From Anaeroplasmataceae bacterium (lineage in GTDB: Bacteria > Bacillota_I > Bacilli_A > Acholeplasmatales > Anaeroplasmataceae), in the NCBI GenBank assembly GCA_029067355.1, contig JAIEEQ010000031.1, forward strand, positions 1 to 58,616: 58,616 nucleotides of DNA, in the 5' to 3' direction. Below the pieces are notes generated by a model. That model was not told the DNA's origin. It was given only the letters and a program-made list of their open reading frames with translations, and searched no databases. Shown piece by piece: positions 9,511 to 28,674 of the stretch. The position numbers were made by a program, and so were the translations under genes. Position 1 is the stretch's first letter, and each line of letters begins with the position of its first letter.

Positions 9511-9527
9511 TTATTTTTTCAAATTTT

Positions 9528-12196: not shown

Positions 12197-12205
12197 AAAA
12201 AACTA

Positions 12206-12236
12206 TTGACTTAGAGTCAACTCCAAGAGTTATAAT
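12206..12236 (+). promoter_or_regulatory. MerR-type promoter with 19-bp spacer
   Basis: -35 TTGACT (12206-12211) and -10 TATAAT (12231-12236) are separated by 19 bp instead of 17. The spacer holds the dyad CTTAGAGT-CA-ACTCCAAG (12210-12227; 7 of 8 arm positions match). A long spacer around a dyad is the hallmark of MerR-activated promoters, and this dyad resembles AdhR/NmlR-type boxes. It drives the merR-like gene and the redox operon behind it. Confidence 0.85.
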
Positions 12237-12272
12237 AATTGTAGAAATGAAATTTAGGCAAGGAGAAAGAAA

Positions 12273-12653: not shown

Positions 12654-12665
12654 GAGGAATTTAAA

Positions 12666-13514
12666 ATGGAATATATTAAATTAAATAATGGAATTAAGAT
12701 GCCTGTATTAGGCTTAGGAACTTTTTTGTTAACACCAGATGAGGCGGAAAACTCTGTTTTACTAGCCTTAAAAAATGGTTATCGTTTGATTGATACTGCA
12801 AATGCATATGTAAATGAAAAGGCAGTTGGAAGAGGAATTAAAAAATCTTTAGTGTCAAGAAATGAAATTTTCTTAGAAACTAAACTTTGGCCAGCATTCT
12901 ATGAGGATGATGATGCAGTAGATAAAACCTTAAAACGGTTAGATACAGAATATATTGACTTAATGATTCTACATCAGCCAGCAGGAAATTATTTGGCAGG
13001 GTACAGACAACTAGAAAAAGGCTATAAAGAGGGTAAATTAAAGGCCATTGGTATTTCTAATTTTAACAAGGATGAAGTTAAGGAAATACTTGATAATTGT
13101 GAGATTAAGCCTGCCTTGATTCAGGTTGAAGCCCATCCATATTACCCGCAAACTCAGTTTAATCAATTTTTAAAAGAGAATAATATCGTTTTGCAATCCT
13201 GGTATCCACTAGGAGGAAAAGGAAACCAGAGTATTTTAACAGAAGAATACATTCAGCAATTAGGTAAGAAATATAACAAATCCAGTGCTCAAATCATTTT
13301 GAAATGGCATATTCAAAAAGGCTATATTGTAATTCCTGGGTCTAGAAGTGAACAGCACATTCAAGAAAATATAGAAGTATTTGATTTTGAACTTACAAAA
13401 GAAGAGATGAGCAAAATAGACAAGCTAGATAAAAATACGCCAATCTATATTAGAACGGATGCTGCCTTAAAGGGGTATGCTAATTGGCGCCCAGATGTAG
13501 ATGGACAGAAATAA
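12666..13514 (+). CDS. Aldo/keto reductase
   Basis: 282 residues of the NADPH-dependent aldo/keto reductase (TIM-barrel) family, usual length. The catalytic tetrad is visible as D43 (LIDTANAY), Y48, K73 (LETKLWP) and H103 (MILHQP); GISNF and PGSRS cofactor motifs are present. It should reduce aldehydes or ketones. Second gene of the MerR operon, with AGGAGG upstream; an electrophile-detoxification role fits. Confidence 0.9.
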   Translation: MEYIKLNNGIKMPVLGLGTFLLTPDEAENSVLLALKNGYRLIDTANAYVNEKAVGRGIKKSLVSRNEIFLETKLWPAFYEDDDAVDKTLKRLDTEYIDLMILHQPAGNYLAGYRQLEKGYKEGKLKAIGISNFNKDEVKEILDNCEIKPALIQVEAHPYYPQTQFNQFLKENNIVLQSWYPLGGKGNQSILTEEYIQQLGKKYNKSSAQIILKWHIQKGYIVIPGSRSEQHIQENIEVFDFELTKEEMSKIDKLDKNTPIYIRTDAALKGYANWRPDVDGQK

Positions 13515-13528
13515 AAGGAGAATAATGT

Positions 13529-14500
13529 ATGGAGTATGTATATTTAGGAGATACAAAAATTAAAGTCTCAAGAATTTGTGTTGAGTGTATGTCCTTTGGA
13601 GATTCTGAGGGAAGATTTCATAAGTGGACCTTGCCGTATGAGGAAACAAAGAAGATGATACAGCATGCCTTATCCTTAGGAATTAATTTCTTTGATACAG
13701 CTAACACCTATTCTGAAGGAACGAGTGAGGAATACTTAGGAAGAGCCTTAAAGGAATTGGGTGTGAAAAGAGAGGATGTGGTTATTGCCTCTAAGGTTTA
13801 TTTTAATGAAGGACATTTATCTAAGGAGGCCATCTTTAGAGAAATAGATGGAACTTTAGAAAGACTTCAAACAACATATCTTGACTTGTATCAGATACAT
13901 CGTTTTGATTATGATACACCTATGGAAGAAACTATGGAGGCATTGCATGAGCTTGTGAAAATGGGAAAGGTAAAAGCCATTGGTGCTTCTGCGATGTATG
14001 GATATCAATTCCATAATATGCAAGAAATTGCTTTAAAGCATAATTGGACACCTTTTTCAACAATGCAGAATCACTATAACCTTTTATATCGTGAGGATGA
14101 AAGAGAGCTTATCCCAGTATGTAAACAATTTAATGTTACGCTCATTCCGTATTCTCCACTAGCAGGAGGCCATTTGTCTCATGTGTCTTGGGAAAGCGAT
14201 AGTCTTAGAAGTCAAACGGATCAGACGATTAGAAAGAAATATGATCATGCAAAGAAGCAGGATTTAGAAATCATAACAAGTGTTAAAGAGATTGCTGATA
14301 AAAAAGGAGTATCCATGAGTCAGATTGCGTTAGCATGGATTCTTTCTAAGGGAGCAAATCCAATTGTAGGGTCTACAAAGCCTCATCACTATGATGAAGC
14401 AGTTAAGGCTTTAGAAATCCAGCTTACAGAAGAAGAGATATCTCTTTTAGAACAATTCTATTTACCTCATCAGGTGGTAGGCGCTTTGCCAGAAAGATAA
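13529..14500 (+). CDS. Aldo/keto reductase (second type)
   Basis: 323 residues of the longer aldo/keto reductase group (AKR11/YajO-like). Tetrad: D56 (FFDTANTY), Y61, K89 (IASKVYF) and H124 (YQIHRFD). The C-terminal cofactor segment VGSTKPHHYDEA is present. The usual LGLGTM-type first loop reads ICVECMSFGD, a small deviation. It follows the first reductase by 14 nt in the same operon. Confidence 0.88.
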   Translation: MEYVYLGDTKIKVSRICVECMSFGDSEGRFHKWTLPYEETKKMIQHALSLGINFFDTANTYSEGTSEEYLGRALKELGVKREDVVIASKVYFNEGHLSKEAIFREIDGTLERLQTTYLDLYQIHRFDYDTPMEETMEALHELVKMGKVKAIGASAMYGYQFHNMQEIALKHNWTPFSTMQNHYNLLYREDERELIPVCKQFNVTLIPYSPLAGGHLSHVSWESDSLRSQTDQTIRKKYDHAKKQDLEIITSVKEIADKKGVSMSQIALAWILSKGANPIVGSTKPHHYDEAVKALEIQLTEEEISLLEQFYLPHQVVGALPER

Positions 14501-14514
14501 AAGGAGGAGCTTAT

Positions 14515-15192
14515 ATGAATCGTTGTAAGGTAATAAGTCATATGTACGTTTCCATTGATGGTAAAATTGATGGAAATTATATGAGTGAACAAGGCTGTAA
14601 TTTTTCTGGAAATTACTATGATACTGCAATTTGGAGTTTGGGTGATTCTATGGCAGGAGGCAGAGTGACAAATACAATGTACCATGCTAAAGGTAATATA
14701 GATTTGAATTTATATAAGAATTCTAAGGTTCCAAAGGGTGATTTTATGATAGAATCAGAGCATTATCATTTCTGCTTTGATAGAAATGGCAAGTCTATAT
14801 GGGAATCAGGCACATTAGAATATGGTGGGGTTACTATGCAGAATGTTGCTGTTTTATCTCAAAATGTAAAAAAAGAGTATTTAGCTTTTTTAAGAGATTA
14901 TAAAGTTGCTTATATCCTTGTAGATTCCTTACAGGAAGCTTTAGAAAAAATAAAAAATGATTTCAAAGTTAATACACTCATTCTTACGGGCGGAGCCATC
15001 ATCAATGGTGCTTTTCATGAGGCAGGATTGATTGATACATTATCCATTGTTATGGCACCTTATATAGAAGGAAACTATGAGGAAAAAGGATATGCTGAGC
15101 TCTCTCATTTTGTAAACCATAAATATAGATATCAATCAATTAAGCCATTAGAGGATGGCGGAATCCATTTGGTTTTTGATAAGGAGGAATAG
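14515..15192 (+). CDS. RibD C-terminal / dihydrofolate-reductase-like protein
   Basis: 225 residues resembling the RibD_C reductase fold: N-terminal MYVSIDGKIDG and a late LILTGGAIINGAFHEAGLIDTL pyridine-nucleotide segment. A stand-alone reductase of this family without the deaminase domain is not expected to make riboflavin; it probably uses NADPH to reduce another substrate. It sits 14 nt behind the reductase gene and 2 nt before the flavodoxin gene. Confidence 0.78.
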   Translation: MNRCKVISHMYVSIDGKIDGNYMSEQGCNFSGNYYDTAIWSLGDSMAGGRVTNTMYHAKGNIDLNLYKNSKVPKGDFMIESEHYHFCFDRNGKSIWESGTLEYGGVTMQNVAVLSQNVKKEYLAFLRDYKVAYILVDSLQEALEKIKNDFKVNTLILTGGAIINGAFHEAGLIDTLSIVMAPYIEGNYEEKGYAELSHFVNHKYRYQSIKPLEDGGIHLVFDKEE

Positions 15193-15194
15193 AG

Positions 15195-15704
15195 ATGAAA
15201 AAATCCTTAATCCTTTATTTTTCTCATATAGGAGAAAACTATATGGCTGATGGAATAAGACCTATCCATAAAGGAAATACAGAGATTGTAGCAGAAATGA
15301 TTCAAAAGGTAACTCAAGCAGAGTTGTTTAAGGTTGAAACGATTATGGAATATCCTTTTTCTTACAAAGCGTGTACAGAGCAAGCCTTAAAGGAAAAGAC
15401 GACTCATGCAAGACCAACCTTGAAGGAATATTTACCCTCTGTTGAATCCTATAATGTAATTTATATTGGCTATCCAAACTGGTGGGGAACAATGCCTATG
15501 CCTTTGTTTAGCTTATTAGAAAAGCTTGATTTTGCTAATAAAATAATTAAGCCTTTTTGTACTCACGAGGGCTCAGGTATGGGAACTAGTATGGAGGATT
15601 TAAAAAAACTATGTCCTAACGCTATAATAAAAAAAGGACTTCCCCTTCAAGGAAGCTTAGTTTCTGATGCTGAAAGTGAAGTTTGGCAATGGACTTTAGA
15701 ATAA
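15195..15704 (+). CDS. Flavodoxin
   Basis: 169 residues. FMN phosphate-loop region at the N-terminus (LYFSHIGENY...GNTEIVA), GYPNWWGTMP in the isoalloxazine-contacting loop, and FCTHEGSGMG near the third FMN loop. This is the subgroup often found next to aldo/keto reductases, probably a flavin-dependent electron carrier or quinone reductase. Same operon. Confidence 0.85.
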   Translation: MKKSLILYFSHIGENYMADGIRPIHKGNTEIVAEMIQKVTQAELFKVETIMEYPFSYKACTEQALKEKTTHARPTLKEYLPSVESYNVIYIGYPNWWGTMPMPLFSLLEKLDFANKIIKPFCTHEGSGMGTSMEDLKKLCPNAIIKKGLPLQGSLVSDAESEVWQWTLE

Positions 15705-15727
15705 GAAATTTTATAGGAGGAAATGTT

Positions 15728-16459
15728 ATGAAGATTAAACAAACAGCAGGAAGAACAATCTTAGGAGAATTTGCTCCTAAATTTGCAGAATTCAATGATG
15801 ATATCTTATTTGGAGAGGTATGGAATCAAGATACCCTTTCTCCCAAAATGCGATCTATGCTTACGATAACTGTGCTTGTAAGTAAAGGACTTGTTGATAG
15901 CTCCTTTGAGCATCACTTAAGCTTTGCAAAGGAAAATGGAGTAACGAAAACAGAAATTGCAGAGCTATTAACTCATATTGCCTTTTATGCTGGATGTCCT
16001 AATGCGTGGGCAGCCTTTCGTATGGCAAAAGAGGTATATAAGGAGGATGCAAAGAATGGAGGTATGTTTGGACTAGGAGAGCCTAATACAGCTTTTTCTA
16101 AATATTTTGTAGGGAACTCTTATTTGAAGCCCTTAACCAATCCAAAGGAAACCATATTTATGGCCAATATAACCTTTGAACCTGGATGCAGAAACAATTG
16201 GCATATCCATCATGCTACAAAGGGTGGAGGGCAAATTCTATTATGTACAGAAGGTACTGGCTGGTATCAGGAATGGGGAAAGGAAGCTCAAAGACTTCAT
16301 CCTGGAGATGTTGTAACAATTCCTGTGGGGGTGAAGCATTGGCATGGAGCATCAAAGGACAGCTGGTTTAGCCATATTGCAGTAGAGGTTCCAGGAGAAA
16401 ATACCTCTAATGAATGGCTAGAGGCAGTTATAGAAGAAAGCTATAATCAATTACTCTAA
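15728..16459 (+). CDS. Carboxymuconolactone decarboxylase-like (AhpD-type) domain fused to cupin
   Basis: About 243 residues. The N-terminal CMD-like domain (about 1-105) has the helical MRSMLTITVLVSKG and TEIAELLTHIAFYAGCPNAWAA, with one Cys where AhpD proteins have CxxC. The C-terminal cupin (about 135-230) has the metal-binding WHIHHATKGGGQILLC and PVGVKHWHGA His pattern. The start has AGGAGG just upstream. Such fusions commonly travel with aldo/keto reductases and flavodoxins in anaerobes; the reaction is unknown. Last gene of the MerR operon. Its 3' end overlaps the convergent LysR gene by 9 bp. Confidence 0.82.
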   Translation: MKIKQTAGRTILGEFAPKFAEFNDDILFGEVWNQDTLSPKMRSMLTITVLVSKGLVDSSFEHHLSFAKENGVTKTEIAELLTHIAFYAGCPNAWAAFRMAKEVYKEDAKNGGMFGLGEPNTAFSKYFVGNSYLKPLTNPKETIFMANITFEPGCRNNWHIHHATKGGGQILLCTEGTGWYQEWGKEAQRLHPGDVVTIPVGVKHWHGASKDSWFSHIAVEVPGENTSNEWLEAVIEESYNQLL

Positions 16460-17329
16460 GCATTCCTTTAAAATTTTTAAAAAAATCTCTGTACATTTTG
16501 GGAATACCTGATATTTTTTCCATGCAATATCTAGGTGAGATATGAGTTTGGGATAAAAGGGTCTAAAGCATAGCTTACTATTACCTGTTACATTTATTAT
16601 TTTGTCTAAGCCAATGGCATAACCTACGCCCTCCTCAACTAGCAAAGAAGCATTATATAAAAGATTATAGGTTGCAACTATGCTGAGCTCCTCAAAGGGC
16701 CTTATAAACCAGTCAGTGATTATACTTTTCCCAAGAGATTGTTCAGAGCATATGAGAGGCTTATCCCATAAATCTTCTGGTACTATGTATTTTTTTTTAG
16801 CAAGAGGGCTATCAGCTAACATAAGTACACCCCAAGTATCTGTATAGGGTAGACGTAGATAATCGTATTTACTTATGTCAAAGGGTTCTATAAAAATTCC
16901 AAAATCTATCAGTCCTTTATCTAGCTTTTCAGAAATGGTTGAACTATCACCACTGAATAAATGAAATCTTACTTTTGGATATTTGAGTTGAACGTTAAGA
17001 ATAGCCTTTGCGATAAGTCCCATGGCGTAGCTTTCTCCACCACCAATATAAATATCACCACTGATATCTGTAATAGGTGTATTCAGCTCAGATTGTGTCT
17101 GACTGTATAATTCTATAATTTCTTCTGCACGCTTACGGAGTAATTGTCCTGTTTCTGTAAGCGTGATTTTTTTTGCTCCACGAATAAACAAGGGTTTACC
17201 TATTTCCTTTTCAAGATTTTGCATTTGCCTAGACAAATTTGGCTGTGTAACAAATAATGCTTTTGCTGCTTTAGAAATGCTTTGCTCCTTTGTGACGGCC
17301 AAAAAATATTTAAGTTCACGAATTTCCAT
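16451..17329 (-). CDS. LysR-family transcriptional regulator
   Basis: 292 residues. N-terminal LysR helix-turn-helix (MEIRELKYFLAVTKEQSISKAA then LFVTQPNLSRQMQNLEKEIG) and a periplasmic-binding-protein-like effector domain (about 90-290). AGGAGG precedes the start. It is divergent from the block beginning at 17464, with a 134-bp shared upstream region. LysR proteins usually regulate the divergent gene, so this one probably controls that redox block. Confidence 0.88.
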   Translation of the reverse strand: MEIRELKYFLAVTKEQSISKAAKALFVTQPNLSRQMQNLEKEIGKPLFIRGAKKITLTETGQLLRKRAEEIIELYSQTQSELNTPITDISGDIYIGGGESYAMGLIAKAILNVQLKYPKVRFHLFSGDSSTISEKLDKGLIDFGIFIEPFDISKYDYLRLPYTDTWGVLMLADSPLAKKKYIVPEDLWDKPLICSEQSLGKSIITDWFIRPFEELSIVATYNLLYNASLLVEEGVGYAIGLDKIINVTGNSKLCFRPFYPKLISHLDIAWKKYQVFPKCTEIFLKILKECLE

Positions 17330-17463
17330 AGATCTAGCCTCCTTTTTTATAAGTTTATCATAGATAATATATGCTTGTCAATTATAGGTAGCCCATAAAA
17401 TATAAGTATTTGACATATGTATGAATAGAAATTAAAATTGAACTATAATGAATGGAGGAAACT

Positions 17464-18033
17464 ATGGACACAGTAAAGTTTAAAGAAGAAATGAAAAATC
17501 AAAGCTATATTCTTGCTAATTCAGAAATGCATTTCCATATGCACGAAATGGCACAAAGAGCAAGAAAAATAACGGTTCAAATGAACAATGTCTACCAAAC
17601 TCCTGAAGAACTGCGGAAGTTATTTTCCGAACTTATTGGACAAATGGTTGACGAAGGGTTTGGGTTGTTTCCGCCTTTTTACGCTGACTACGGGAAAAAT
17701 ATAAAAGTTGGAAAAAATGTATTTATCAATTCGGGCTGCTGTTTTCAGGATCAGGGAGGAATAGAAATTGGAGATAACGTGCTTATTGGTCAACAAGTCA
17801 TAATAGCAACTATAAATCACGACCTTAATCCAAGTAAACGGGGAAATATGTTCCCTGCACCCGTAAAAATTGGAAACAATGTATGGATAGGTTCGCACGC
17901 AACTATTCTTTCGGGTGTAACTATTGGTGATGGTGTAGTTATAGCCGCAGGTGCAGTTGTAACAAAGAATATTCCAAAAAATGTGGTTGTTGCGGGAGTT
18001 CCTGCTAAAATAATAAAACAAATAGAGGTATAA
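17464..18033 (+). CDS. Hexapeptide-repeat O-acetyltransferase (Maa/LacA type)
   Basis: About 189 residues. N-terminal maltose/galactoside acetyltransferase helix region (Mac-like) followed by left-handed beta-helix hexapeptide repeats (about 75-185: [50 protein letters not shown]). The catalytic His is in TINHDL. It acetylates a sugar or other small acceptor from acetyl-CoA. ATG 17464 is used because GGAGG lies at 17454-17458. It opens a block whose codon use is visibly more GC-tolerant than the flanking genes. Confidence 0.85.
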
Positions 18034-18034
18034 A

Positions 18035-18658
18035 ATGAAAGTCTTACTTTTTAACGGAAGTCCAAGAGCTAATGGATGTACTTTCACAGCTCTTTTAGAA
18101 GTCGCAAGTGTACTCAATACACAGGGCATTGAAACAGAAATACTGCAAATCGGAAATAAGTCAGTACAGGATTGTATTGGCTGTAATGGTTGCGCCAACA
18201 AAGGCAAATGCGTATTCTCTAATGATTGCGTAAATGAATGGATAGAAAAAGCGAAAACGGCAGATGGTTTTGTATTTGGAACACCTGTTTATTATGCCCA
18301 CCCATCAGGGCGCATACTTTCAGCTATGGATAGGCTTTTCTATGCAGGAGGAAATGCTTTTGAGCATAAGCCTGCTGCCGTTGTAGCGTCTGCAAGGCGT
18401 GCTGGAACAACGGCAACACTTGATACAATTAGCAAATATTTTGGAATAGCACAAATGCCTGTTATATCTTCCACCTATTGGAATATGGTACATGGAAATA
18501 CTCCTGAAGAAATAAAGCAAGATTTAGAGGGGATGCAAACAATGCGAAATATAGGTGCAAATCTAGCTTGGATTTTGAAATGTATTCAAGCAGGTAAAAA
18601 GTTGGGAATAAACTCACCGCAGGCAGATACGTCCGCGTGGACGAATTTTATAAGATGA
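18035..18658 (+). CDS. Iron-sulfur flavoprotein-like NADPH-dependent FMN reductase
   Basis: 207 residues, flavodoxin-like fold: FNGSPRANGCT FMN-binding loop, then a compact Cys motif CIGCNGCANKGKC with a further Cys in SNDC, the cluster-binding pattern of Isf-type flavoproteins, and the GTPVYYAHPSG loop. Expected role is two-electron reduction of small molecules or quinones with FMN and a 4Fe-4S cluster. It begins 1 nt after the acetyltransferase stop. Confidence 0.82.
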   Translation: MKVLLFNGSPRANGCTFTALLEVASVLNTQGIETEILQIGNKSVQDCIGCNGCANKGKCVFSNDCVNEWIEKAKTADGFVFGTPVYYAHPSGRILSAMDRLFYAGGNAFEHKPAAVVASARRAGTTATLDTISKYFGIAQMPVISSTYWNMVHGNTPEEIKQDLEGMQTMRNIGANLAWILKCIQAGKKLGINSPQADTSAWTNFIR

Positions 18659-18678
18659 AAATAAGGAGTTGTTTTATA

Positions 18679-19650
18679 ATGGAAAAATTGAACCTGACAA
18701 ATGAATGGGATAAAACTTTCATAAAAAGCGATAAAGTAAATCATGAAAAAATTACTTTTCATAACCGCTACGGGATAACCCTTTCGGCGGACCTTTACAT
18801 TCCAAAGCAAGCACGAGGCCAGTTTCCTGCGATTGCGGTTTGTGGTCCGTTTGGTGCAGTAAAAGAACAGTCTTCAGGACTTTACGCTCAAACTATGGCA
18901 GAACGTGGATTTTTAACGCTTGCCTTTGATCCGTCATTTACAGGTGAAAGTGGCGGACAACCAAGATATGTTGCTTCACCAGACATCAATACGGAGGATT
19001 TTTGTGCGGCAGTAGATTATCTTTCCTGTCGTGAAGATGTAGATGGCGACAAAATAGGGATTATTGGTATTTGTGGTTGGGGCGGTATGGCAATCAATGC
19101 GGCAGCTATTGACACACGGATTAAGGCGACAGTTGCTTCCACTATGTACGATATGACAAGAGTAAACGCCAAAGGATATTTTGATGCAGAAGATAGCGAA
19201 GAAGCTCGCTATGAAACTAAGAAAGTCTTAAATGCACAAAGAATTGTTGATTACAAAAACGGCAGCTACGAACTTGGTGGTGGCGTGGCAGATACCATTC
19301 CCAATGACGCACCATTCTTTGTAAAAGATTATTACGATTACTACAAAACGACACGGGGTTATCATAAACGTTCCCTTAACTCTAATGGTGGTTGGAACAA
19401 GACTTCCGCTCTTTCTTTTATCAATATGCCAATACTCTCTTACATCAATGAGATACGTAGTGCTGTACTTGTTATGCATGGCGAAAAGGCACACTCTTGC
19501 TATTTCAGTAAAGATGTTTTTAAGAACTTAAACGGCGATAATAAAGAATTGCTTTTGATACCAGGTGCCGTTCATACTGATTTGTATGATCGCAAGGATA
19601 TTATTCCATTCAATAAACTTGAAGAGTTTTTCAAAAAAAATTTTAACTAA
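18679..19650 (+). CDS. Alpha/beta hydrolase-fold protein (atypical nucleophile elbow)
   Basis: About 323 residues of the dienelactone-hydrolase-like alpha/beta family. The oxyanion region GPFGAVKEQ, DPSFTGES and a late His (PGAVHTDLYD) are present. The nucleophile elbow reads GICGWGG with no GxSxG, so the Ser is missing; a Cys two residues earlier is the only alternative. A whole subfamily with this GWGGMA signature exists, to my knowledge uncharacterised. AAGGAG at 18663-18668 supports ATG 18679. It lies between flavoprotein and alcohol dehydrogenase genes. Confidence 0.78.
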   Translation: MEKLNLTNEWDKTFIKSDKVNHEKITFHNRYGITLSADLYIPKQARGQFPAIAVCGPFGAVKEQSSGLYAQTMAERGFLTLAFDPSFTGESGGQPRYVASPDINTEDFCAAVDYLSCREDVDGDKIGIIGICGWGGMAINAAAIDTRIKATVASTMYDMTRVNAKGYFDAEDSEEARYETKKVLNAQRIVDYKNGSYELGGGVADTIPNDAPFFVKDYYDYYKTTRGYHKRSLNSNGGWNKTSALSFINMPILSYINEIRSAVLVMHGEKAHSCYFSKDVFKNLNGDNKELLLIPGAVHTDLYDRKDIIPFNKLEEFFKKNFN

Positions 19651-19664
19651 AAAGGAGATAAATT

Positions 19665-20831
19665 ATGTTAGGTAACTTCACTTATTCAAACCCCACTAAA
19701 CTCTATTTTGGCAAGGATGCATTGGACGGTCTTAATAAAGAACTGCCCAAATACGGAAAAAACGTATTGCTCGTTTATGGTGGCGGCTCTATTAAGAAAA
19801 ATGGTATCTATGATAAAGTAGTTGCTATTCTCAAAGCTAATGGCAAAGAGATTTATGAAGATGCAGGTGTTATGCCTAATCCAACTGTCCAAAAACTCAA
19901 TGAAGGTATCAAGCGGGCAAAAGCAGCAAAAGCTGACCTTATTCTTGCAGTTGGTGGCGGGTCAGTCTGCGACTATGCAAAAGCTGTGTCTATTTCTGTA
20001 AATTGCAACGACGACGCTTGGGACAAATATTTTATTCGTTTTGAGGACGTAACCTGTGATATAATTCCTGTCGGTTGTGTTTTGACAATGGTTGGAACAG
20101 GGAGTGAAATGAATGGAGGTTCAGTCATTAGCAACCACGAACAAAAGTTGAAAATAGGACGTGTTTTTGGCGATAACGTATTCCCAAAGTTTTCTATAAT
20201 GAATCCTGAATTCACATTTACTATACCTAAATATCAAATGGTATCAGGAATTTATGATATTATGTCGCACATTCTTGAACAGTATTTTTCTGGGACAGAT
20301 GATAATACAAGTGATTACATTATGGAAGGACTTTTGCGTTCACTGATTCACAGCACAAATATAGCTGTTGAAAATCCCACTGACTATGAAGCAAGAAGTA
20401 ACATTATGTGGACGGCAACTTGGGCTTTGAATACTCTTGTTGCAAAAGGCAAGACAACCGATTGGATGGTACATATGCTTGGTCAGGCGGTTGCAGCTTA
20501 TACGGACGCAACACACGGAATGACGCTTGCAGCGGTAACTATGCCGTACTACAAATATATTCTACCTTATGGAACAGCAAAGTTTGCTCGCTATGCCATA
20601 AATGTTTGGAATGTCAACCCTGAAGGCAAGACTGACACTCAGGTTGCTTATGAAGGGTTGTTGGCTATGGAAAAATGGATGAAAAAAATTGGACTTGTTA
20701 TGAACATAACTGAACTAGGTGCAAATGAAGAATTACTTGATGGAATGGTAAAAAGCACTTTCGTTATGGAAGGCGGTTACAAGATATTGAATGAAAAAGA
20801 TATTCGAGCTGTACTCAATGCAAGTTTTTAA
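19665..20831 (+). CDS. Iron-containing alcohol dehydrogenase (YqhD/BDH type)
   Basis: 388 residues, the normal length. NAD(P)H-binding YGGGSIKKNG and AVGGGSVCDYAKA, GTGSEMNGG, and metal ligands in DIMSHILEQYF and HMLGQAV...DATHGMTLA. The YGGGSIKKNG start is typical of the NADPH-dependent butanol dehydrogenase/YqhD branch that reduces aldehydes. A Shine-Dalgarno AAAGGAG precedes it. It fits an aldehyde-reducing redox block. Confidence 0.9.
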   Translation: MLGNFTYSNPTKLYFGKDALDGLNKELPKYGKNVLLVYGGGSIKKNGIYDKVVAILKANGKEIYEDAGVMPNPTVQKLNEGIKRAKAAKADLILAVGGGSVCDYAKAVSISVNCNDDAWDKYFIRFEDVTCDIIPVGCVLTMVGTGSEMNGGSVISNHEQKLKIGRVFGDNVFPKFSIMNPEFTFTIPKYQMVSGIYDIMSHILEQYFSGTDDNTSDYIMEGLLRSLIHSTNIAVENPTDYEARSNIMWTATWALNTLVAKGKTTDWMVHMLGQAVAAYTDATHGMTLAAVTMPYYKYILPYGTAKFARYAINVWNVNPEGKTDTQVAYEGLLAMEKWMKKIGLVMNITELGANEELLDGMVKSTFVMEGGYKILNEKDIRAVLNASF

Positions 20832-20855
20832 TACAATAAAAAAGGAGTTGAAAAA

Positions 20856-21392
20856 ATGAAAAATGTTATTGTGGTCACAAGCTCACCAAGAAAAAACGGC
20901 AATTCAGAAATTTTGGCACAAAAGTTTGCTGAAGGTGCAAAGTCAGCAGGAAATCAAGCAAATATTATAGCGGTATGCAATATCGACTTGAAATTCTGCA
21001 CAGGCTGTCTTTACTGCAATACACACAGTAAATGTGTGTTGAATGACGGAATGAACACACTTTATGAAAACTTCCAAAATGCGGACGTTCTTGTGTTTGC
21101 TACCCCTATTTACTATTATTCGGTTTGCGGTCAACTCAAGACTTTGCTTGATAGGCTAAATCCTTTATTTGTCCGTAAAAACAAATTCAAAGATGTTTAT
21201 CTTCTTGCAACAGCGGCAGACGATGATGATAGTGCAATGGATGGTGCTATTAAAGATATTCAAGGTTGGGTAAGTTGTTTTGACGGTGTAACACTCAAAG
21301 GTGTAATACGCGGTATTGGTGTTACAGATAAAGGCGAAATAAACAATACAACTTATCCTCAGCAAGCCTATGAGATGGGCAAAAACATTTAG
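20856..21392 (+). CDS. Flavodoxin-fold iron-sulfur flavoprotein-like reductase
   Basis: 178 residues. FMN loop TSSPRKNGNSE, cysteines FCTGCLYCNTHSKC as in Isf-type flavoproteins, and ATPIYYYSVCGQLKTLLDR. It is related to, but distinct from, the gene at 18035. Same operon orientation and close spacing (24 nt), ending 8 nt before the lipoprotein gene. Confidence 0.82.
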   Translation: MKNVIVVTSSPRKNGNSEILAQKFAEGAKSAGNQANIIAVCNIDLKFCTGCLYCNTHSKCVLNDGMNTLYENFQNADVLVFATPIYYYSVCGQLKTLLDRLNPLFVRKNKFKDVYLLATAADDDDSAMDGAIKDIQGWVSCFDGVTLKGVIRGIGVTDKGEINNTTYPQQAYEMGKNI

Positions 21393-21400
21393 GTGGAAAT

Positions 21401-22804
21401 ATGAAAAAACTTTTTGCAATACTTTGTATAGCGTTAATTGCGAGCTTTGCTTTTGTAAGTTGTACTGACAGCAATCAGCCACAACGGAACACGTATATGG
21501 TTACTTTCGATTCGCAAGGTGGCAGTAGAGTTGCAGATCAAGAGGTCTTGGAAGGCAATCCCATAAGACGTCCTGAAACACCTGAAAGAAATGGATATTT
21601 TCTAAACGGTTGGTATTTGACTTCTTCACCTACCGCAGATTCAGAATGGCATTTTGATACGGATTTCGTTACCAAAGATATAACGCTGTATGCAGGTTGG
21701 ACTATTGAAAATTTACAAGATCCAACAGAAAAACTCATATTCAAGCAAGACGGCAATGCTTATACCATTACAGGCACAACAGGCGAAGATACAATCATAG
21801 TTATACCAAGTGAATACAACGGGTTGCCAGTAACAAAAATTCAAGGCGAATTTGGTACGGGTGCGTTTGCAAGAACAGCCATAACAAAAGTTACTATTCC
21901 TGATTCCATTATTGAAATTGGACAAAATTCATTTAATAATTGTAGTAGCTTACAAACGGTAGTTATCAGCACTCAAAGCAATCTAACTACTATTGGGAAC
22001 AATGCTTTTTTAGGTAATTCGTCTTTAACTGAAATGTATATCCCTATTGGTATGGTCAATTTAGGCGATAGCGTTTTTAATAACTGCGGTGCAATAGAAC
22101 GATTTATAGTTGCTGATGGCAATTCAGCCTATAAATCGGAAAACGGACATTTAATTTCAAAAGGTAATGAAATGCTTATTCGCGGTTCAAATAATCAAGA
22201 AATTCCAAATGGGGTTAAGTCGATAGGTATTGCAGCTTTCAGAAGAAGTATTATTACTGAGTTGATTATACCTGATTCGGTAACAGAAATAGGAAACTAT
22301 TTTATAAGTGATAGCGGCATAGAGAAAATAACTTATAAAGGTACTGCTGAAAGTTGGGAACAAGTGGAAAAAGCAAACTTATGGAATTTTGGGAAAACAG
22401 ATATTACTATTGAGTTTGTTCCTAAAATCGAGCAAGAGGAAATCACTAAAATGTATATAACAATCAATGGCAATAAATTAGAAGTTACACTTGCGGAAAA
22501 TTCTTCAGTTGGTGCACTTGTGGAACGATTAAAGCAGGGCGATATTATCTACACGGCAAACGATTATGGAGGCTTTGAAAAAGTTGGAAGTTTGGGATTT
22601 AGTCTACCAACAAACGATACTCAAATCACTACGCAATCAGGTGATGTAATATTATATTTGGGTAATCAAATCGTTTTATTTTATGGCAGCAACTCATGGT
22701 CTTACACAAGACTTGGAAGAATCATCGGATATTCCGCTTCTGAATTGCGAACCCTTCTTGGTGCAGGGAATGGCAGTTCACAGGTTATGATAAGTTTGAA
22801 ATAA
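21401..22804 (+). CDS. Lipoprotein: Listeria-Bacteroides repeat, BspA repeats, cyclophilin-like domain
   Basis: 467 residues. The signal peptide ends at FVSC (lipid Cys about residue 21). Domains in order: one Listeria-Bacteroides repeat (about 30-105, VTFDSQGG...LNGWY...LYAGW), BspA-type LRR_5 repeats (about 115-340), and a C-terminal domain (about 350-467, MYITINGNKLEVTLAENSS ... GDVILYLGNQIVLFYG) that matches the cyclophilin-like (Cyclophil_like) fold often encoded beside aldo/keto reductases and flavodoxins. The combination of an adhesion-type repeat protein with a redox-cluster domain is unusual. Confidence 0.78.
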   Translation: MKKLFAILCIALIASFAFVSCTDSNQPQRNTYMVTFDSQGGSRVADQEVLEGNPIRRPETPERNGYFLNGWYLTSSPTADSEWHFDTDFVTKDITLYAGWTIENLQDPTEKLIFKQDGNAYTITGTTGEDTIIVIPSEYNGLPVTKIQGEFGTGAFARTAITKVTIPDSIIEIGQNSFNNCSSLQTVVISTQSNLTTIGNNAFLGNSSLTEMYIPIGMVNLGDSVFNNCGAIERFIVADGNSAYKSENGHLISKGNEMLIRGSNNQEIPNGVKSIGIAAFRRSIITELIIPDSVTEIGNYFISDSGIEKITYKGTAESWEQVEKANLWNFGKTDITIEFVPKIEQEEITKMYITINGNKLEVTLAENSSVGALVERLKQGDIIYTANDYGGFEKVGSLGFSLPTNDTQITTQSGDVILYLGNQIVLFYGSNSWSYTRLGRIIGYSASELRTLLGAGNGSSQVMISLK

Positions 22805-22859
22805 GAAATTAGGTACTGGTTTAATTTTATAAGATAAAAATTTTAAATGGTGGTAAAGA

Positions 22860-24334
22860 ATGAAAAAAATTATAGGAGTGGTTCTAGTATTTATTATGGC
22901 AATATTTGGATTCGTGGCTTGTAATGGTAACAGTCCAACTGATAATGGCGGTACAGTTGGAAACGGAAATTCAGGCAGTGGAAATAACAATCCACCTGTA
23001 ATCACTACAAACAATATCTTGATTGCTTACTTTTCTTGTACAAATACAACTGAAGCAATAGCAAATCACATCCAAACAGAAACAAAAGGAAAGCTTTATG
23101 AGATAGTGCCTGAAGTGCCTTATACTGCAGAAGATTTGCAGTATTATACAGGAGGCAGAGCTGACCAAGAACAAGCTGATGCAACAGCCCGCCCTGCAAT
23201 AAGCAGTAGCATTGAAGATTTAGACAAATACAACGTGATATTTTTAGGCTATCCCATTTGGCATGGTCAAGCCCCAAGAATCATTTATACTTTTTTGGAA
23301 AGTTACGATTTTTCAGGAAAGACGATAGTTCCGTTCTGCACATCTCATTCAAGCGGTATTGGTTCAAGTGATACAAATTTACATTCTCTCACTCCTAATG
23401 CTGAATGGGTTTCAGGTAGGCGATTCTCATCAGGTGCTTCTCAAAAAACTGTTGCTGATTGGATTGATAGTCTTGATATTAAACTCATCCCTAACGTGGC
23501 AACTTTTGATTTGGAAAATGGTGAAAATGGGTGTGCACCTACCATTATGCTTAACAGCGGATATGAAATGCCTGTTCTTGGAATTGGTACATATTCTCTG
23601 CATGGTGAAACGTGTGTAAATTCAGTATTATCTGCGCTTGAAAGTGGCGTTCGACTGATTGATACAGCCTATATGTATGGCAATGAAAAAGAGGTTGGAG
23701 AGGCAATACGATCTAGTGGAATTCCACGAGAGGATATATTTGTAATCACAAAATCTATCCAGGTGAACAATTTTTAAATCCAGAAGCTGCAATTCAAAGG
23801 GCGCTTGCTGCTTTGGACATAGGATATATTGATATGATGCTTTTACATCACCCTGGCTCAAATGACGTGAAAGCGTATAAAGCAATTGAAAAGTTTGTTG
23901 AGCAAGGCAAGATACGTTCTATTGGATTGTCAAATTGGTATATAGAAGAAATTGACGATTTTATAGCACAAGTAAATATTATGCCCGCACTCGTTCAAAA
24001 CGAAATCCACCCATATTATCAGGAACAACAAGTTGTGCCGTATATGCACTATCTTGGAATTGTTATGCAAGCGTGGTATCCGTTTGGCGGACGAGGACAT
24101 ACAAATGCAATCTTCAATAATAGTACAATTACTAATATCGCGAGAACTCACAATGTAACAAGTGCACAGGTTGTTTTGCGTTGGCATTTGCAACGTGGTG
24201 TAGTTGCAATTCCTGGTTCTTCTAATCCTGAACATATAAAAGAAAATATATCTGTGTTTCATTTTTCTTTAAATGAAGAAGAAATGAACGCCATAGCTAT
24301 GCTTGATAGGAACGAAAAGCATGAATGGTATTAA
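22860..24334 (+). pseudogene. Lipoprotein-anchored flavodoxin / aldo-keto reductase fusion, frameshifted
   Basis: The first part (stop at 23775-23777) encodes a signal peptide ending FGFVAC (Cys21), a Gly/Asn-rich linker, a flavodoxin domain (about 48-205; LIAYFSCTNTTEAIA, GYPIWHGQAP, FCTSHSSGIG) and the start of an aldo/keto reductase (from about 220, MPVLGIGTYSLHG, IDTAYMYGNE). The rest of the reductase (YPGEQFLNPEAAI onward, LLHHPG, GLSNW) continues in another frame from about 23756 to 24334. One base is missing near 23751-23755, where ITK should run into LYPGEQF. Either this is a recent pseudogene or a sequence error; both halves are otherwise well conserved. Confidence 0.8.
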
Positions 24335-24367
24335 TTGATAAACTTAGAATTGATTCTGTAATAATTG

Positions 24368-24400
24368 AAAATCCAGTGATTTATACCCACTGGATTTTTT
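24368..24400 (+). terminator. Rho-independent terminator after the redox block
   Basis: AAAATCCAGTG (24368-24378) pairs with CACTGGATTTT across a 9-nt loop, with a T run to 24400. Confidence 0.85.
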
Positions 24401-24518
24401 ATCTTAAATTTTCTCAATAAAAGAATTTAGCTATGTACTATGTGGTATTGGTGCTGTATGCTTTTCTATAAAAGCTATAAAAAAGTAATATGGAATTATC
24501 ATTTGTATTTTTGTAGAA

Positions 24519-24560
24519 AGAGTCTATTGTCGAATTTATTCGGGATATAGACTTTTATTT
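24519..24560 (+). terminator. Strong hairpin upstream of the GHKL cassette
   Basis: AGTCTAT and CGAAT (24521-24535) pair with ATTCG (24538-24542) and ATAGACT (24547-24553), followed by TTTATTT. It insulates the GHKL operon from upstream transcription or acts as a leader attenuator. A TGC-TAGAAT extended -10 follows near 24569-24577. Confidence 0.65.
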
Positions 24561-24604: not shown

Positions 24605-26506
24605 ATGGAAAATATGTGGAGATTTCCAGGAAATGGATATACTCAAGACCAAGGATTAGATACTTCTGATATGGAAACCTTTAAAAAGGATCCAATAGCC
24701 TCACTAGCAAGGGAGCTTTGTCAAAACTCAATAGATGCAAGGAAGAAGACTGCAAAGGGGCCTGTCAGGGTTGAATTTAAATCATTTTCAATTCAAAGAA
24801 ATCAAATTCCTCAAGTGGATTCTATTGAAAAGCAAATTTTAGCTTGTAAAGATACATGGACTACGAATAAAAAGATTTCTGACCAATTAGAAGTTATGCT
24901 GAATCAAATCCAAAAAGAAGAAATTTCATGCTTAAGAATTAGTGATTTTAATACAAAGGGACTTGTAGGTGTAAGTGGTGGAGATAATACACCATGGCAT
25001 TATATGATTCATGGATCAGGTCTTTCTAATAAATCTTCTACGAGTGGAGGATCAAAGGGAATTGGTAAATTTGCTACCTTTGTTACCTCTCAGTTTAATA
25101 CTGTTTTTTATTCCACAATTACAGAAGAAAAGGAAAAAGGCTATCAAGGAATATGTAAGCTATGCTCTGCAAGACAAGAGGGGACAACTGAAAAAACCAT
25201 TGGTATAGGCTATTATGGTTCATCCATTCAAAATGAGCCTATTGGTGGTGAATTTAATTTAGATAAAGAATATAAAAGAAGTGGAAAAACTGGAACAGAT
25301 ATTTTTATTTTAGGCTTTAAAAATCCTGCTGGCTGGAAGGCAGATATTATATCAAAAATTTTGGAAAGTTTTATTAGTGCTATTGTATTTGAGGATTTAG
25401 AGGTTGTAGTTGATGAACATATCATCAATAAAGAGAATCTTAAAAATATCGTTTATGATGAGAATCTTATTAACAAATCAAGTAGAAAATCCATCATTTC
25501 TCAGTATCTGCTGTTGACTGATGAAGAGCATAGATATGAGGATAGTATTGATTTTAAGGAATTAGGAAAAGCAAAGCTGTTCTTAATGGAATTTGACAGC
25601 GAGAATGAGCATCTTGCTACTAATGGATGTGTTATGATTCGGTATCCTTTAATGAAAATTAGGGATATAGATAAAATTACGACACTTCCATGCAGTGCAA
25701 TGTGTATTATAGAAAATAACACATTAAATTCCATTTTGAGAAATGTAGAAAATCCTCAGCATACAAACTGGGAATTTAATCGTATTGAGGACGATAAAGA
25801 GCGTGCTGAGGTTAGAAGTATCTATAAGAAACTTTTAGATGAAATAAGAAAACTAATTATGGAGCATTTGGCTACAAGCGATAGCTTTCAAACAGATGTT
25901 GTCGGAGCTGGAAATTTTATCCCAGGTTCAGAAAGTTCAGAGGGTTTAGGTGTTGATTCTGTCAATAAAAAAATTTTGGATAAGCCTGAGATAACCACAA
26001 AAAAGGTTAAATCAACAGAAGTTAAGCTGGAGACTTTTATTCCAGATGAAAATGGGGATGAGATATTAGAAATTGAAGCAGAGGGCGAAGAAGAGGATGA
26101 AAAGGAAGCTGGTGGACATCAAAGAGCTTCTAAGGAGTATTCAAAATCTGATATACAGAGTAAGGGTGGTACATCGTCTAATCATACTTTGGTAAGGTAT
26201 TCTGAAATAAAGGGGATGTCTTACAGACTGATGTGCTTAAATAAAAAAATGAGAATGTATGCAATAGCCTTTACCTCTACTGTGGAAGAAAAAGAGGTCA
26301 TATTAGAGCTGTTTGCATTAGATGATGGAGGAGCAAAGACACAGGTATTAATTCTTGCATGTACTGTAAATGGTGTGAAGGCACAGATTATTAATAGAAA
26401 GAAAATTAAGTTTTCAGTCAGTGATGGTCAGAAAATAAAAATTGAAATGATTACTGATCAGTCTGAATTATTTAGTAGTGAGGTTAAATTATATGCGTGT
26501 AGGTAA
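24605..26506 (+). CDS. GHKL (Hsp90/MutL/MORC-like) ATPase, first gene of a three-gene cassette
   Basis: 633 residues. The Bergerat ATP-binding fold is clear: N-box ELCQNSIDA (E37, N41, D45), G1 box SDFNTKGL (D114) and G2 box GGSKGIGKFA (148-157). A transducer-like region follows to about 290, then an unassigned middle, a Glu-rich linker (about 490-515) and a C-terminal beta-rich domain (about 525-633). It has no histidine kinase H-box and is not HtpG or MutL. Such GHKL ATPases occur in MORC-like restriction or phage-defence operons. AGGAGG lies at 24591-24596. It overlaps the next gene by 14 nt. Role in defence is inference from family and cassette structure. Confidence 0.8.
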   Translation: MENMWRFPGNGYTQDQGLDTSDMETFKKDPIASLARELCQNSIDARKKTAKGPVRVEFKSFSIQRNQIPQVDSIEKQILACKDTWTTNKKISDQLEVMLNQIQKEEISCLRISDFNTKGLVGVSGGDNTPWHYMIHGSGLSNKSSTSGGSKGIGKFATFVTSQFNTVFYSTITEEKEKGYQGICKLCSARQEGTTEKTIGIGYYGSSIQNEPIGGEFNLDKEYKRSGKTGTDIFILGFKNPAGWKADIISKILESFISAIVFEDLEVVVDEHIINKENLKNIVYDENLINKSSRKSIISQYLLLTDEEHRYEDSIDFKELGKAKLFLMEFDSENEHLATNGCVMIRYPLMKIRDIDKITTLPCSAMCIIENNTLNSILRNVENPQHTNWEFNRIEDDKERAEVRSIYKKLLDEIRKLIMEHLATSDSFQTDVVGAGNFIPGSESSEGLGVDSVNKKILDKPEITTKKVKSTEVKLETFIPDENGDEILEIEAEGEEEDEKEAGGHQRASKEYSKSDIQSKGGTSSNHTLVRYSEIKGMSYRLMCLNKKMRMYAIAFTSTVEEKEVILELFALDDGGAKTQVLILACTVNGVKAQIINRKKIKFSVSDGQKIKIEMITDQSELFSSEVKLYACR

Positions 26507-27398
26507 AAGATTATTTCCATATCCTGTTTTGAATAATAATAAGCTATATTCGCAGTATAAAAACGCTACTTTATCCTTAGAATATGATGAAGTTGTTACA
26601 GAGGAATATCTAATTTTAGATAATATTCACTGCAATATTGATAGTAGCTACATAAAGAATCTTCTCTTTGAAGGCTATGCTGAAGCAGTATGTGTAGTAG
26701 AATGTACTCAGACGATGCTTAGAAATCATTATGTAATTACGGATAAAATGAATGACATTAGGATTCCTTTAATGGATATCAATGGAAAGGTGGATATTTC
26801 CTTATTTATTGTTGCTAAAAAGGATATCCCTACCTTTAAGTGTAATGATTTTTTAGATGAATATAGTGATTATGAATTTTATATAGAAAAAAATGATATC
26901 ATAGGTGTAGACGATGGATTTACAAGCAGAATAGAGTTTAATGAGGAAGACGATATGGAGAAGTCTTCTATCTTTCTTGTGATTAAAGATACAAACATTA
27001 TGGATCAGTCTATGAGAATTGAGCTCGCAGATGATAAAATTATCATTTCTCTTCCTCAGGAGCAATGGAATGAGTATGACAGGACGAAAAGAATTAGAAA
27101 ATTTCAAAACCTTTATTTTTCTATTATTGCTGTTCCTGCTTTAAGCTATGCCTTGTCTGAAATGCAAAGATTAGGTGAAAGTATAGATAATATCCGAATT
27201 GAAAAAAAATGGTTTAATTCCTTTTGTATAGCATACAAGAATAGAAAGAGTGAAGAATTAACAGATGAGTATTTCATGCAGATGAATCCTTATTTTGAGG
27301 CACAAAGGCTTCTAAATTATCCAGTTACCAAGGCTTTGGATGATATATTTGCATTAACAATGACTATGGGAGGTATTGATGATGGAAATCAATATTAA
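26493..27398 (+). CDS. Unknown protein, second gene of the GHKL cassette
   Basis: About 301 residues with no domain I recognise. It is predicted mostly beta in the first 210 residues (MRVGKRLFPYPVLN start, repeated short hydrophobic strands, acidic loops), with a helical end (about 215-300). It has no signal peptide or membrane segment. ATG 26493 is preceded by GAGGTT and overlaps the ATPase gene, and its 3' end overlaps the next gene by 17 nt, so the three products are made together. A substrate-recognition or adaptor role is only a guess. Confidence 0.7.
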   Translation: MRVGKRLFPYPVLNNNKLYSQYKNATLSLEYDEVVTEEYLILDNIHCNIDSSYIKNLLFEGYAEAVCVVECTQTMLRNHYVITDKMNDIRIPLMDINGKVDISLFIVAKKDIPTFKCNDFLDEYSDYEFYIEKNDIIGVDDGFTSRIEFNEEDDMEKSSIFLVIKDTNIMDQSMRIELADDKIIISLPQEQWNEYDRTKRIRKFQNLYFSIIAVPALSYALSEMQRLGESIDNIRIEKKWFNSFCIAYKNRKSEELTDEYFMQMNPYFEAQRLLNYPVTKALDDIFALTMTMGGIDDGNQY

Positions 27399-28128
27399 GC
27401 TTATGTCAGAGGTTGCCTATATCACCCTACAAAAAAATCCAGAGGATGTTTATCAAAACATTCTTAAGCATCCAGACGATTCCTCTTGGCTAAATGATTA
27501 TTTTGGAACAAGTCCCTATGAAGAAAAAGAATATCTTATTGAGGATTTTAAGTTAAAAGATGCAGAGGATTACAATGAGGTTCTTTTTGAAAATTGCATA
27601 ATCATTTATGAGCATTTAAAACATCTGCCAAGATATATTTTATGCAATCCAAGATTTTGGGCATGGATTACCTTTGAAAAGACCTATAAGGAAGCACAGA
27701 GGGCTTCAAAATTAACTGGATCTGATCTCATTTCTTCAATATGGTTAATTACAGGCTCAAGACGTTCCTTAATGTTAGGTGTAATTTCTCGTTCCTTTTT
27801 TCTGGTTCAAATGTCCGTAGAAGAAACGAAGAAGGAAAAATATGAACTAACAAAATATCTTCTGACGAATCTTGAAACCTACCGTAATTTCTGTTATCGA
27901 AATATGGGAATGCTAAAAAATGTAACTTGTGCTGTCATTCGTGCTCAGAAGGATATTTGTGAAAAATTTCACATCTCCCTTGTAAATAAGCAGAGTGCAG
28001 CAATGATTAAGGAAACCTCAAAAATTGGGTCTGTTATGCTCATAGACATTATGACTGAAGAAGAAATTTATGAAATTATTTATCCTAAATTTGTTAAAAT
28101 AGCCTTAGAACGTCGCTATTTACTCTAG
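27382..28128 (+). CDS. DUF6339-like protein, third gene of the GHKL cassette
   Basis: About 248 residues, largely helical. The pattern with an early NPRFWAWITF, a SRSFFLVQMS core and YELTKYLL ... YRNFCYRN resembles what I remember of the DUF6339 family; this is recall, not a search. No catalytic motif is obvious. GGGAGGT at 27368-27374 supports ATG 27382 (or 27379). It ends the cassette, 18 nt before a terminator hairpin. Confidence 0.65.
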   Translation: MEINIKLMSEVAYITLQKNPEDVYQNILKHPDDSSWLNDYFGTSPYEEKEYLIEDFKLKDAEDYNEVLFENCIIIYEHLKHLPRYILCNPRFWAWITFEKTYKEAQRASKLTGSDLISSIWLITGSRRSLMLGVISRSFFLVQMSVEETKKEKYELTKYLLTNLETYRNFCYRNMGMLKNVTCAVIRAQKDICEKFHISLVNKQSAAMIKETSKIGSVMLIDIMTEEEIYEIIYPKFVKIALERRYLL

Positions 28129-28145
28129 CATAATCAAGAAAATAT

Positions 28146-28190
28146 AAAAAGTGCTATTTGCCAAAATAAAGACTGGCCATAGCATTTTTT
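28146..28190 (+). terminator. Rho-independent terminator of the GHKL cassette
   Basis: TGCTAT plus GCCA pairs with TGGC plus ATAGCA, flanked by A5 and T6, around a 10-nt loop. Confidence 0.85.
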
Positions 28191-28389
28191 ATTAGATTGT
28201 TCTAAGGAGGATATTTAGAAGTGGCTCATTTATTTTCATCTATTCAGCTTTGATTCAGAAAATCTTTTGCTTTTATTTTCTTGTAATTTGCACAATACGG
28301 AAATTATTTTCTTTTTCTGTAAATTTATTTCTATGTCAAAGAAAGTTTATGAAAGATATGGTAAAATAAAGAAAAAGAGGGTAAAGAGC

Positions 28390-28674
28390 ATGAAAACAAG
28401 ATTATCAGAGCTTTTGGATAAAAAAGAAATCAAAAGAAAAGTAATAGCTAAGGATTTAGGAATTGAAAAAAGAACATTAGACAATTATGTGAATGAAATA
28501 ACCTTAATGAATAGTGATGTTATTGTGAAAATTGCAAAGTATTTAAATGTCTCAACAGATTATTTGCTTGGAGTTGATCAAATTAACGATGATTTTTTGA
28601 ATCAGAAGATTGACAAAATAAGCTGTGAGCTAAAGGAGATTGTTTATCATTTGAATTCTAACCAGAAATCTTAA
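28390..28674 (+). CDS. XRE-family helix-turn-helix protein
   Basis: 94 residues. Cro/C1-type helix-turn-helix (about 1-62: LSELLDKKEIKRKVIAKDLG ... NYVNEITLMNSDVIVKIAKYLNVSTDYLLG) and a short helical tail. ATG 28390 follows AGAGGGTAAAG. It is a single gene between the GHKL cassette and pncC. It could regulate the cassette, but a terminator separates them and nothing shows this directly. Confidence 0.8.
   Translation: MKTRLSELLDKKEIKRKVIAKDLGIEKRTLDNYVNEITLMNSDVIVKIAKYLNVSTDYLLGVDQINDDFLNQKIDKISCELKEIVYHLNSNQKS

What the first reader, a model, noticed from the sequence alone, without database searches (positions are those of the whole stretch)
24605..28128. Three-gene GHKL ATPase cassette: candidate undescribed system
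Three genes are translationally coupled (overlaps of 14 and 17 nt), isolated by strong hairpins on both sides and placed among unrelated genes. The first is a MORC/Hsp90-like ATPase with intact N, G1 and G2 boxes but no kinase, mismatch-repair or chaperone partner. The second is unrecognisable and the third looks like a DUF6339 protein. GHKL ATPases paired with unknown proteins in compact accessory operons are often anti-phage or restriction systems.
Basis: partly seen in the sequence, partly recalled or inferred. Interest (0 to 1): 0.8.

Follow-up and report, generated by a model that had tools for sequence, protein, structure and literature searches.

The report
Known-candidate three-gene GHKL defence cassette
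Three overlapping genes form a conserved bacterial module built around an ATP-using clamp-like enzyme; it matches an existing, untested candidate anti-phage system (PADLOC 'PDC-M33') whose relatives often share operons with DNA-restriction genes, so it is probably a restriction-type defence, but how it works is unknown.

Summary
In detail: three intact genes (24605-28128) overlap by 14 and 17 nt between hairpins. It is not undescribed: all three match PADLOC's phage-defence candidate PDC-M33A/B/C (E 3e-144, 3e-58, 9e-32), and gene 3 is DUF6339. No experimental test was found in the literature searched. The A-B-C order holds wherever contigs are long enough, from Mollicutes and Clostridia to Deinococcota; in 392 phylum genomes all 18 with DUF6339 also hold gene A. 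Gene A has ordered GHKL motifs and the invariant ExxxH of 'paraMORC2', predicted in 2008 from restriction-modification (R-M) operons; I infer M33A = paraMORC2. R-M-type genes lie within seven genes in 37 of 46 diverse loci. Adjacent same-strand neighbours are often within 30 nt: sigma-r4 protein 20/20, D12 methylase 5/7, C5 methylase 6/11. B models as beta-sandwich plus helices, C as a confident helical fold; neither has a PDB match. The window's copy is a reduced form: no R-M nearby, yet kept under purifying selection, with an unlinked type II R-M elsewhere in the genome. Most likely a restriction-type anti-phage module; its mechanism is inferred, not shown.

The parts
24605..26506 (+). Gene A, 633 aa: GHKL-type ATPase, PDC-M33A / paraMORC2-like. 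N box ELCQNSIDA 37-45, G1 DFNTKGL 114-120, G2 GGSKGIGK 148-155, GTD 230-232, MIRxPxMKI 344-352, ExxxH E382-H386; acidic low-complexity linker about 441-530; the fold of the C-terminal part is unknown.
   Evidence: PADLOC E 3.3e-144 over residues 1-631; motifs invariant in 75 homologues; weak local profile matches to MutL, MORC/MzaB and pooled GHKL sets above shuffled controls; no Pfam HATPase hit; no structure predicted
26493..27398 (+). Gene B, 301 aa: PDC-M33B. Predicted beta-sandwich part (about 20-188) followed by a helical part (about 189-292). Invariant P11, S159, P215, W240; conserved E70, C71, R77, Q271.
   Evidence: PADLOC E 3e-58; AlphaFold model pLDDT 86.8, pTM 0.50; no PDB match at E<=0.001 or by sequence
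27382..28128 (+). Gene C, 248 aa: DUF6339, PDC-M33C. Confident, mostly helical single domain. Conserved N19, N71, W93, R128, R137, D147 (E in the window), D222.
   Evidence: Pfam PF19866 E 5.4e-26; PADLOC E 8.8e-32; model pLDDT 93.2, pTM 0.90; no PDB or viral fold match; conservation
28390..28674 (+). Probable fourth member in this genus: 94-aa Xre/Cro-type HTH protein (the longest ORF, 28267-28674, starts too early).
   Evidence: Pfam HTH_26 E 1.2e-07; found with the triad in the genus relatives examined, absent from the two triad-less relatives at the cinA junction
24367..24399 (+). Hairpin upstream of the cassette, terminator-like, followed by a T-rich stretch
   Evidence: -14.4 kcal/mol, z -4.5
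24518..24556 (+). Second hairpin, just before the promoter/RBS region of gene A
   Evidence: -14.0 kcal/mol, z -3.0
28144..28192 (+). Hairpin downstream of gene C, terminator-like
   Evidence: -18.5 kcal/mol, z -4.4

Best explanation
The cassette is a reduced, stand-alone member of the PDC-M33 (paraMORC2) family: a three-protein, ATP-driven, restriction-type anti-phage or anti-mobile-DNA module. Shown here: the three genes are a fixed, translationally coupled unit under purifying selection. Relatives are usually found beside, and often operonically coupled to, DNA methyltransferases or a large sigma-r4-domain protein. Inferred: A works as an ATP-gated dimeric clamp on DNA, as MutL-, gyrase- and MORC-type GHKL proteins do. 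B is the adaptor that couples A to target recognition or to C. C (DUF6339) is the effector or its regulator. Linked modification and DNA-binding genes, where present, mark self DNA or supply specificity. In the window's lineage those roles would fall to the linked HTH (regulation), to an unlinked type II R-M, or be dispensable.
For: PADLOC PDC-M33A/B/C full-length matches. Strict synteny: A-B-C in all 80 named-genome loci where the contig is long enough, in plasmids, in Deinococcus and in viral contigs. All 18 DUF6339-positive genomes lie among the 22 M33A-positive of 392, p about 1e-27 treating genomes as independent. R-M context: methylase, sigma-r4, Z1, SNF2, MzaB or DUF6997-type genes in 37 of 46 diverse loci with adequate flanks; C5/D12 methylases in 37 of 237 near versus at most 3 of 118 far genes, p 1e-4. 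Gap <=30 nt when adjacent and on the same strand: C5-methylase upstream 5/5 but downstream only 1/6; D12 methylase downstream 5/7; sigma-r4 protein 20/20; 76-aa protein 20/22. Also beside AlwI, Vsr, MutH/Sau3AI, MmeI and AbiG genes on plasmids. Nonsynonymous change far below synonymous in A, B and C (pN 0.13-0.22 versus pS 0.63-0.72 against the window copy).
Against: No phage-challenge data were found. The window's copy has no R-M gene nearby, and its genus keeps it beside housekeeping genes at the same divergence as its neighbours, so it is long-resident rather than freshly acquired. Adjacent downstream C5-methylases mostly sit 114-165 nt away, so not every linked methylase is translationally coupled. 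No nuclease, toxin or other effector motif was recognised in B or C. The GHKL assignment of A rests on motifs and weak local profile matches, not a structure. PDC families are themselves predictions based partly on genomic context (my understanding of PADLOC-DB), so the match is not independent proof of defence.
Confidence: 0.62

Rival explanations
1. Dedicated accessory of R-M systems: the triad is the restriction helper of a linked or unlinked methyltransferase/endonuclease, for example DNA looping or clamping between recognition and cleavage sites as Iyer et al. proposed, and does nothing on its own.
For: Methylases in 31 of 46 loci with adequate flanks, often coupled; the 2008 proposal for paraMORCs; the window's genome has an unlinked type II MTase (E 3e-142) with an adjacent REase (E 2e-78) on contig C83.
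Against: Linked methylases are of unrelated classes (C5, D12, N6/N4, MmeI), so no single partner; 9 of 46 loci lack any detected R-M-type gene; the window genus keeps the main copy of the triad away from adjacent R-M genes; G005 shows no C5, no D12 and only a weak N6_N4 hit, though it has N6_Mtase hits.
Confidence: 0.3
2. Self-contained abortive-infection system; R-M genes are only defence-island neighbours.
For: Fixed three-gene core with variable surroundings; retention alone in the window genus; HTH regulator linked in this genus; AbiG genes beside the Lactococcus copies.
Against: Many linked methylase and sigma-r4 genes are translationally coupled, not merely nearby.
Confidence: 0.2
3. Host DNA-repair or maintenance function, for example a MutL-like helper that limits damage from methylases or Vsr.
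For: GHKL proteins include MutL; C5 methylases and Vsr nucleases near some relatives; long residence in the genus.
Against: The host has its own MutL next to a MutS-like gene elsewhere (L172); patchy distribution, 22 of 392 genomes; plasmid and viral-contig carriage.
Confidence: 0.1
4. Domesticated or decaying remnant with a new regulatory role in the window lineage.
For: R-M partners absent; stable chromosomal site beside cinA; linked HTH.
Against: All three genes intact, ATPase motifs invariant, strong purifying selection across the genus.
Confidence: 0.08

Closest known systems
PADLOC-DB PDC-M33 (phage defence candidate M33A/B/C)
   Same: All three proteins match full length in the same order.
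   Different: Nothing in the core; the window copy lacks the R-M, sigma-r4 and 76-aa neighbours common in relatives and has an Xre HTH instead.
paraMORC2 GHKL ATPases (Iyer, Abhiman, Aravind 2008, PMC2292703)
   Same: GHKL motifs, invariant ExxxH after the ATPase region, Gram-positive bias, R-M neighbourhoods of relatives.
Mza (MzaA-E)
   Same: Mza also has a GHKL protein (MzaB) and a protein with a sigma-r4-like stretch (MzaA); some M33 loci sit beside MzaB and Z1 genes.
   Different: A does not match MzaB (hhalign not significant); B and C matched only M33B/M33C models; no Z1 near the window triad.
GHKL-Shedu (VcSduA)
   Same: GHKL ATPase proposed to gate an effector (PMC12137116).
   Different: No recognised nuclease domain in A, B or C.
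MutL
   Same: N-box pattern ELxxNxxDA.
   Different: Separate MutL beside a MutS-like gene in the same genome (L172); A carries a different C-terminal half and G1 spacing (D-x4-G).

Membership tests
PDC-M33 (PADLOC) | Full-length M33A, M33B and M33C matches | tested here: met
   E 3.3e-144, 3e-58, 8.8e-32
PDC-M33 (PADLOC) | The three genes adjacent in order A-B-C | tested here: met
PDC-M33 (PADLOC) | Anti-phage activity | not testable with these tools
   needs phage challenge; no report found
paraMORC2 (Iyer 2008) | GHKL motifs intact | tested here: met
   ordered invariant N, G1, G2 and GT(D) motifs in 75 sequences; profile support weak but above shuffles
paraMORC2 (Iyer 2008) | Strongly conserved ExxxH in C-terminal part of S5 domain | tested here: met
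   E382/H386 in 75 of 75; its position in an S5 fold is not shown
paraMORC2 (Iyer 2008) | S5-fold domain after GHKL | not tested
paraMORC2 (Iyer 2008) | R-M gene neighbourhood | tested here: inconclusive
   R-M-type genes in 37 of 46 loci, but not at the window locus
MORC (sensu stricto) | GhXhhpXXRhl motif in S5 | tested here: not met
   0 of 75
Mza | MzaB GHKL plus Z1 and partner genes | tested here: not met
   A matches M33A only; no MzaB or Z1 cluster member near the window triad
MutL mismatch repair | Orthology to MutL / MutS partner | tested here: not met
   separate MutL/MutS-like locus on C76; no NCBIfam MutL match for A

The most novel reading that the evidence does not exclude
A-B-C is a new mechanistic class of restriction: a GHKL clamp that silences or destroys foreign DNA through a DUF6339 effector of a fold not in the PDB, able to plug into R-M, sigma-r4 or other recognition partners and, in the Anaeroplasmataceae, to work without any linked recognition gene.
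Probability: 0.25. Interest if true: 0.75.

Novelty: new member of a known kind. Interest (0 to 1): 0.45.

Why it matters
It ties an untested defence candidate (PDC-M33) to a 2008 prediction (paraMORC2 ATPases in R-M operons). It shows that the core is a fixed three-protein unit often found in operons with R-M or DNA-binding genes, and gives fold models for two proteins with no structural relative. The reduced form here makes a clean test possible: does the triad work with no linked methylase?

Tried and rejected
Undescribed system: rejected. MORC proper: S5 motif absent in 75 of 75. Mza: rejected for the core. MutL: rejected. PDB sequence search gave nothing for A (one E 0.99 hit) or B, and for C only short matches to designed helical-repeat proteins with no stretch passing on its own. 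Foldseek for B gave only unrelated proteins, mostly FN3-type beta-sandwiches, at E >= 0.01, and nothing for C in the PDB or the viral library. hhalign of A with MzaB was not significant; local N-box and G2 matches to larger GHKL sets exceeded shuffles, but the small paraMORC-like set of two sequences did not clearly do so. Literature: no hit for DUF6339 or PDC-M33; a lactococcal plasmid defence paper recalled from memory (10.1093/nar/gkae671) is not held, so I cannot exclude that a Lactococcus copy was tested there.

Full report
WHAT IS THERE. The three reading frames are real and intact. Gene A runs 24605-26506. Gene B, with the start shared by its relatives, is ATG 26493-27398. Gene C is ATG 27382-28128. 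The overlaps are 14 and 17 nt. Hairpins at 24367-24399 and 28144-28192 are far more stable than shuffled sequence (z about -4.5 and -4.4), although the rule-based terminator scan did not list them and found no excess over chance. The surroundings are metabolic (flavodoxin/aldo-keto reductase, alcohol dehydrogenase, cinA), not a defence island.

WHAT THEY ARE. PADLOC-DB recognises all three, full length, as PDC-M33A, PDC-M33B and PDC-M33C; gene C is Pfam DUF6339. So the system is a catalogued but, as far as I could find, untested phage-defence candidate; text searches for DUF6339 and PDC-M33 found no paper. Gene A carries ordered, invariant GHKL-type motifs and an invariant E-x-x-x-H in 75 of 75 homologues. 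Iyer et al. (PMC2292703) describe 'paraMORC2' by GHKL+S5, an ExxxH late in S5, a Gram-positive/cyanobacterial range and R-M neighbourhoods. I infer that M33A is paraMORC2; I could not compare with their sequences or test the S5 fold. The GHKL assignment itself rests on motif order plus weak local profile matches (N box to the MutL and pooled GHKL sets, G2 box to the MORC/MzaB set) that beat shuffled, reversed and unrelated controls. The separate test for MORC's own S5 motif failed in all 75.

A FIXED UNIT. In 392 phylum genomes, 22 hold M33A and 18 hold DUF6339; all 18 are among the 22 (p about 1e-27 if genomes were independent, which related genomes are not). Among 80 named-genome loci, A, B and C follow in order wherever the contig is long enough; apparent absences of B or C from my ORF picker were resolved by six-frame profile search. 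The same unit is on plasmids of Lactococcus, Ligilactobacillus, Priestia, Planococcus and Paenarthrobacter, in Deinococcus and in viral contigs.

NEIGHBOURHOOD. In 68 non-redundant loci I clustered the flanking proteins and named the main clusters by Pfam/PADLOC. C5-methylases occur in 22 loci, D12 adenine methylases in 16, an 800-1180 aa protein with a sigma-70 region 4 domain in 27 (some members are fragments), and a protein of about 76 aa in 34. Of 46 loci with at least three genes on each side, 31 have a C5 or D12 methylase and 37 have some R-M-type gene. C5 plus D12 methylases make up 37 of 237 near genes against at most 3 of 118 far genes. Coupling differs by gene and side. When the sigma-r4 protein is adjacent, all 20 cases lie within 30 nt. 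The 76-aa protein does so in 20 of 22, an upstream C5-methylase in 5 of 5, and a downstream D12 methylase in 5 of 7. A downstream C5-methylase does so in only 1 of 6 same-strand cases (the others are 114-165 nt away) and 1 of 3 opposite-strand cases. So some linked methylases share the operon and others are near but separately spaced. The methylases belong to several unrelated classes, which argues against one obligatory partner.

THE WINDOW'S FORM. In the window's genus (relatives titled Anaeroplasmataceae and related Mollicutes) the triad sits between variable upstream genes and HTH-cinA-udk. Two relatives lack both triad and HTH at that junction. Its nucleotide identity to relatives (about 75%) equals that of the adjacent core genes, so it is long resident. 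pN is 0.13-0.22 against pS 0.63-0.72 for A, B and C when the window copy is compared with four relatives, with synonymous sites near saturation. No C5 or D12 methylase was found in the window's genome, but an unlinked type II MTase with an adjacent REase is on contig C83.

STRUCTURE. B models as a beta-rich domain plus a helical domain (pLDDT 86.8, pTM 0.50, so domain placement is uncertain); the PDB look-alikes are mostly generic beta-sandwiches at E >= 0.01. C is a confident helical fold (pLDDT 93.2, pTM 0.90) with no match in the PDB or viral libraries. I built no model of A.

MECHANISM. Shown: a three-protein unit, conserved order, purifying selection, frequent R-M association with coupling in many but not all cases. 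Inferred: A is an ATP-gated clamp on DNA, B couples it to recognition or to C, and C is the effector or its regulator. Overall I hold restriction-type anti-phage or anti-mobile-DNA function as most likely (0.62); R-M accessory (a special case of it), autonomous abortive infection, repair and domestication are the rivals.

NOVELTY. This is a new member of a known candidate family. What is added here is the proposed PDC-M33/paraMORC2 link, the coupling pattern with R-M and sigma-r4 genes, the 76-aa partner, the form without linked R-M in this genus, and two fold models without structural relatives.

Noticed in passing
L184 (NZ_CP115927.1) 6016-11288 and L185 (NZ_CP097546.1): The 76-aa protein family found upstream of M33A also lies upstream of a different GHKL-like protein (GHKL read by eye from motifs in L184; no PADLOC hit). 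In L184 GajA and GajB (Gabija) genes follow; in L185 similarly annotated ATP-binding and UvrD-helicase genes follow. It may be a general partner of GHKL defence proteins; no Pfam or PADLOC match.
   Followed up: partly
A12 family, e.g. L058:7194-10001: An 800-1180 aa protein with a mid-protein sigma-70 region 4 domain is within 30 nt of the triad in all 20 adjacent cases; the rest of it has no Pfam or PDB match.
   Followed up: partly
window 22860-24334: A flavodoxin-aldo/keto reductase fusion appears broken by a frameshift between 23777 and 23813.
   Followed up: no
window 9528-24334 versus L019 and L021: The VWA gene at 9528-10895(-) is the direct upstream neighbour of the triad in two relatives (84% identity); in the window about 13.7 kb of other, mainly metabolic, genes lie between them.
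   Followed up: partly
L024 7237-8649: In one relative (G005) a 470-aa ORF on the opposite strand lies between gene C and the HTH.
   Followed up: no
G000:C83 (L179): Unlinked type II R-M pair in the host: 600-aa MTase and an adjacent REase frame open at the end of the fetched stretch.
   Followed up: partly
window 27820-27822, residue E147 of gene C: The window has E where 70 of 74 homologues have D.
   Followed up: no
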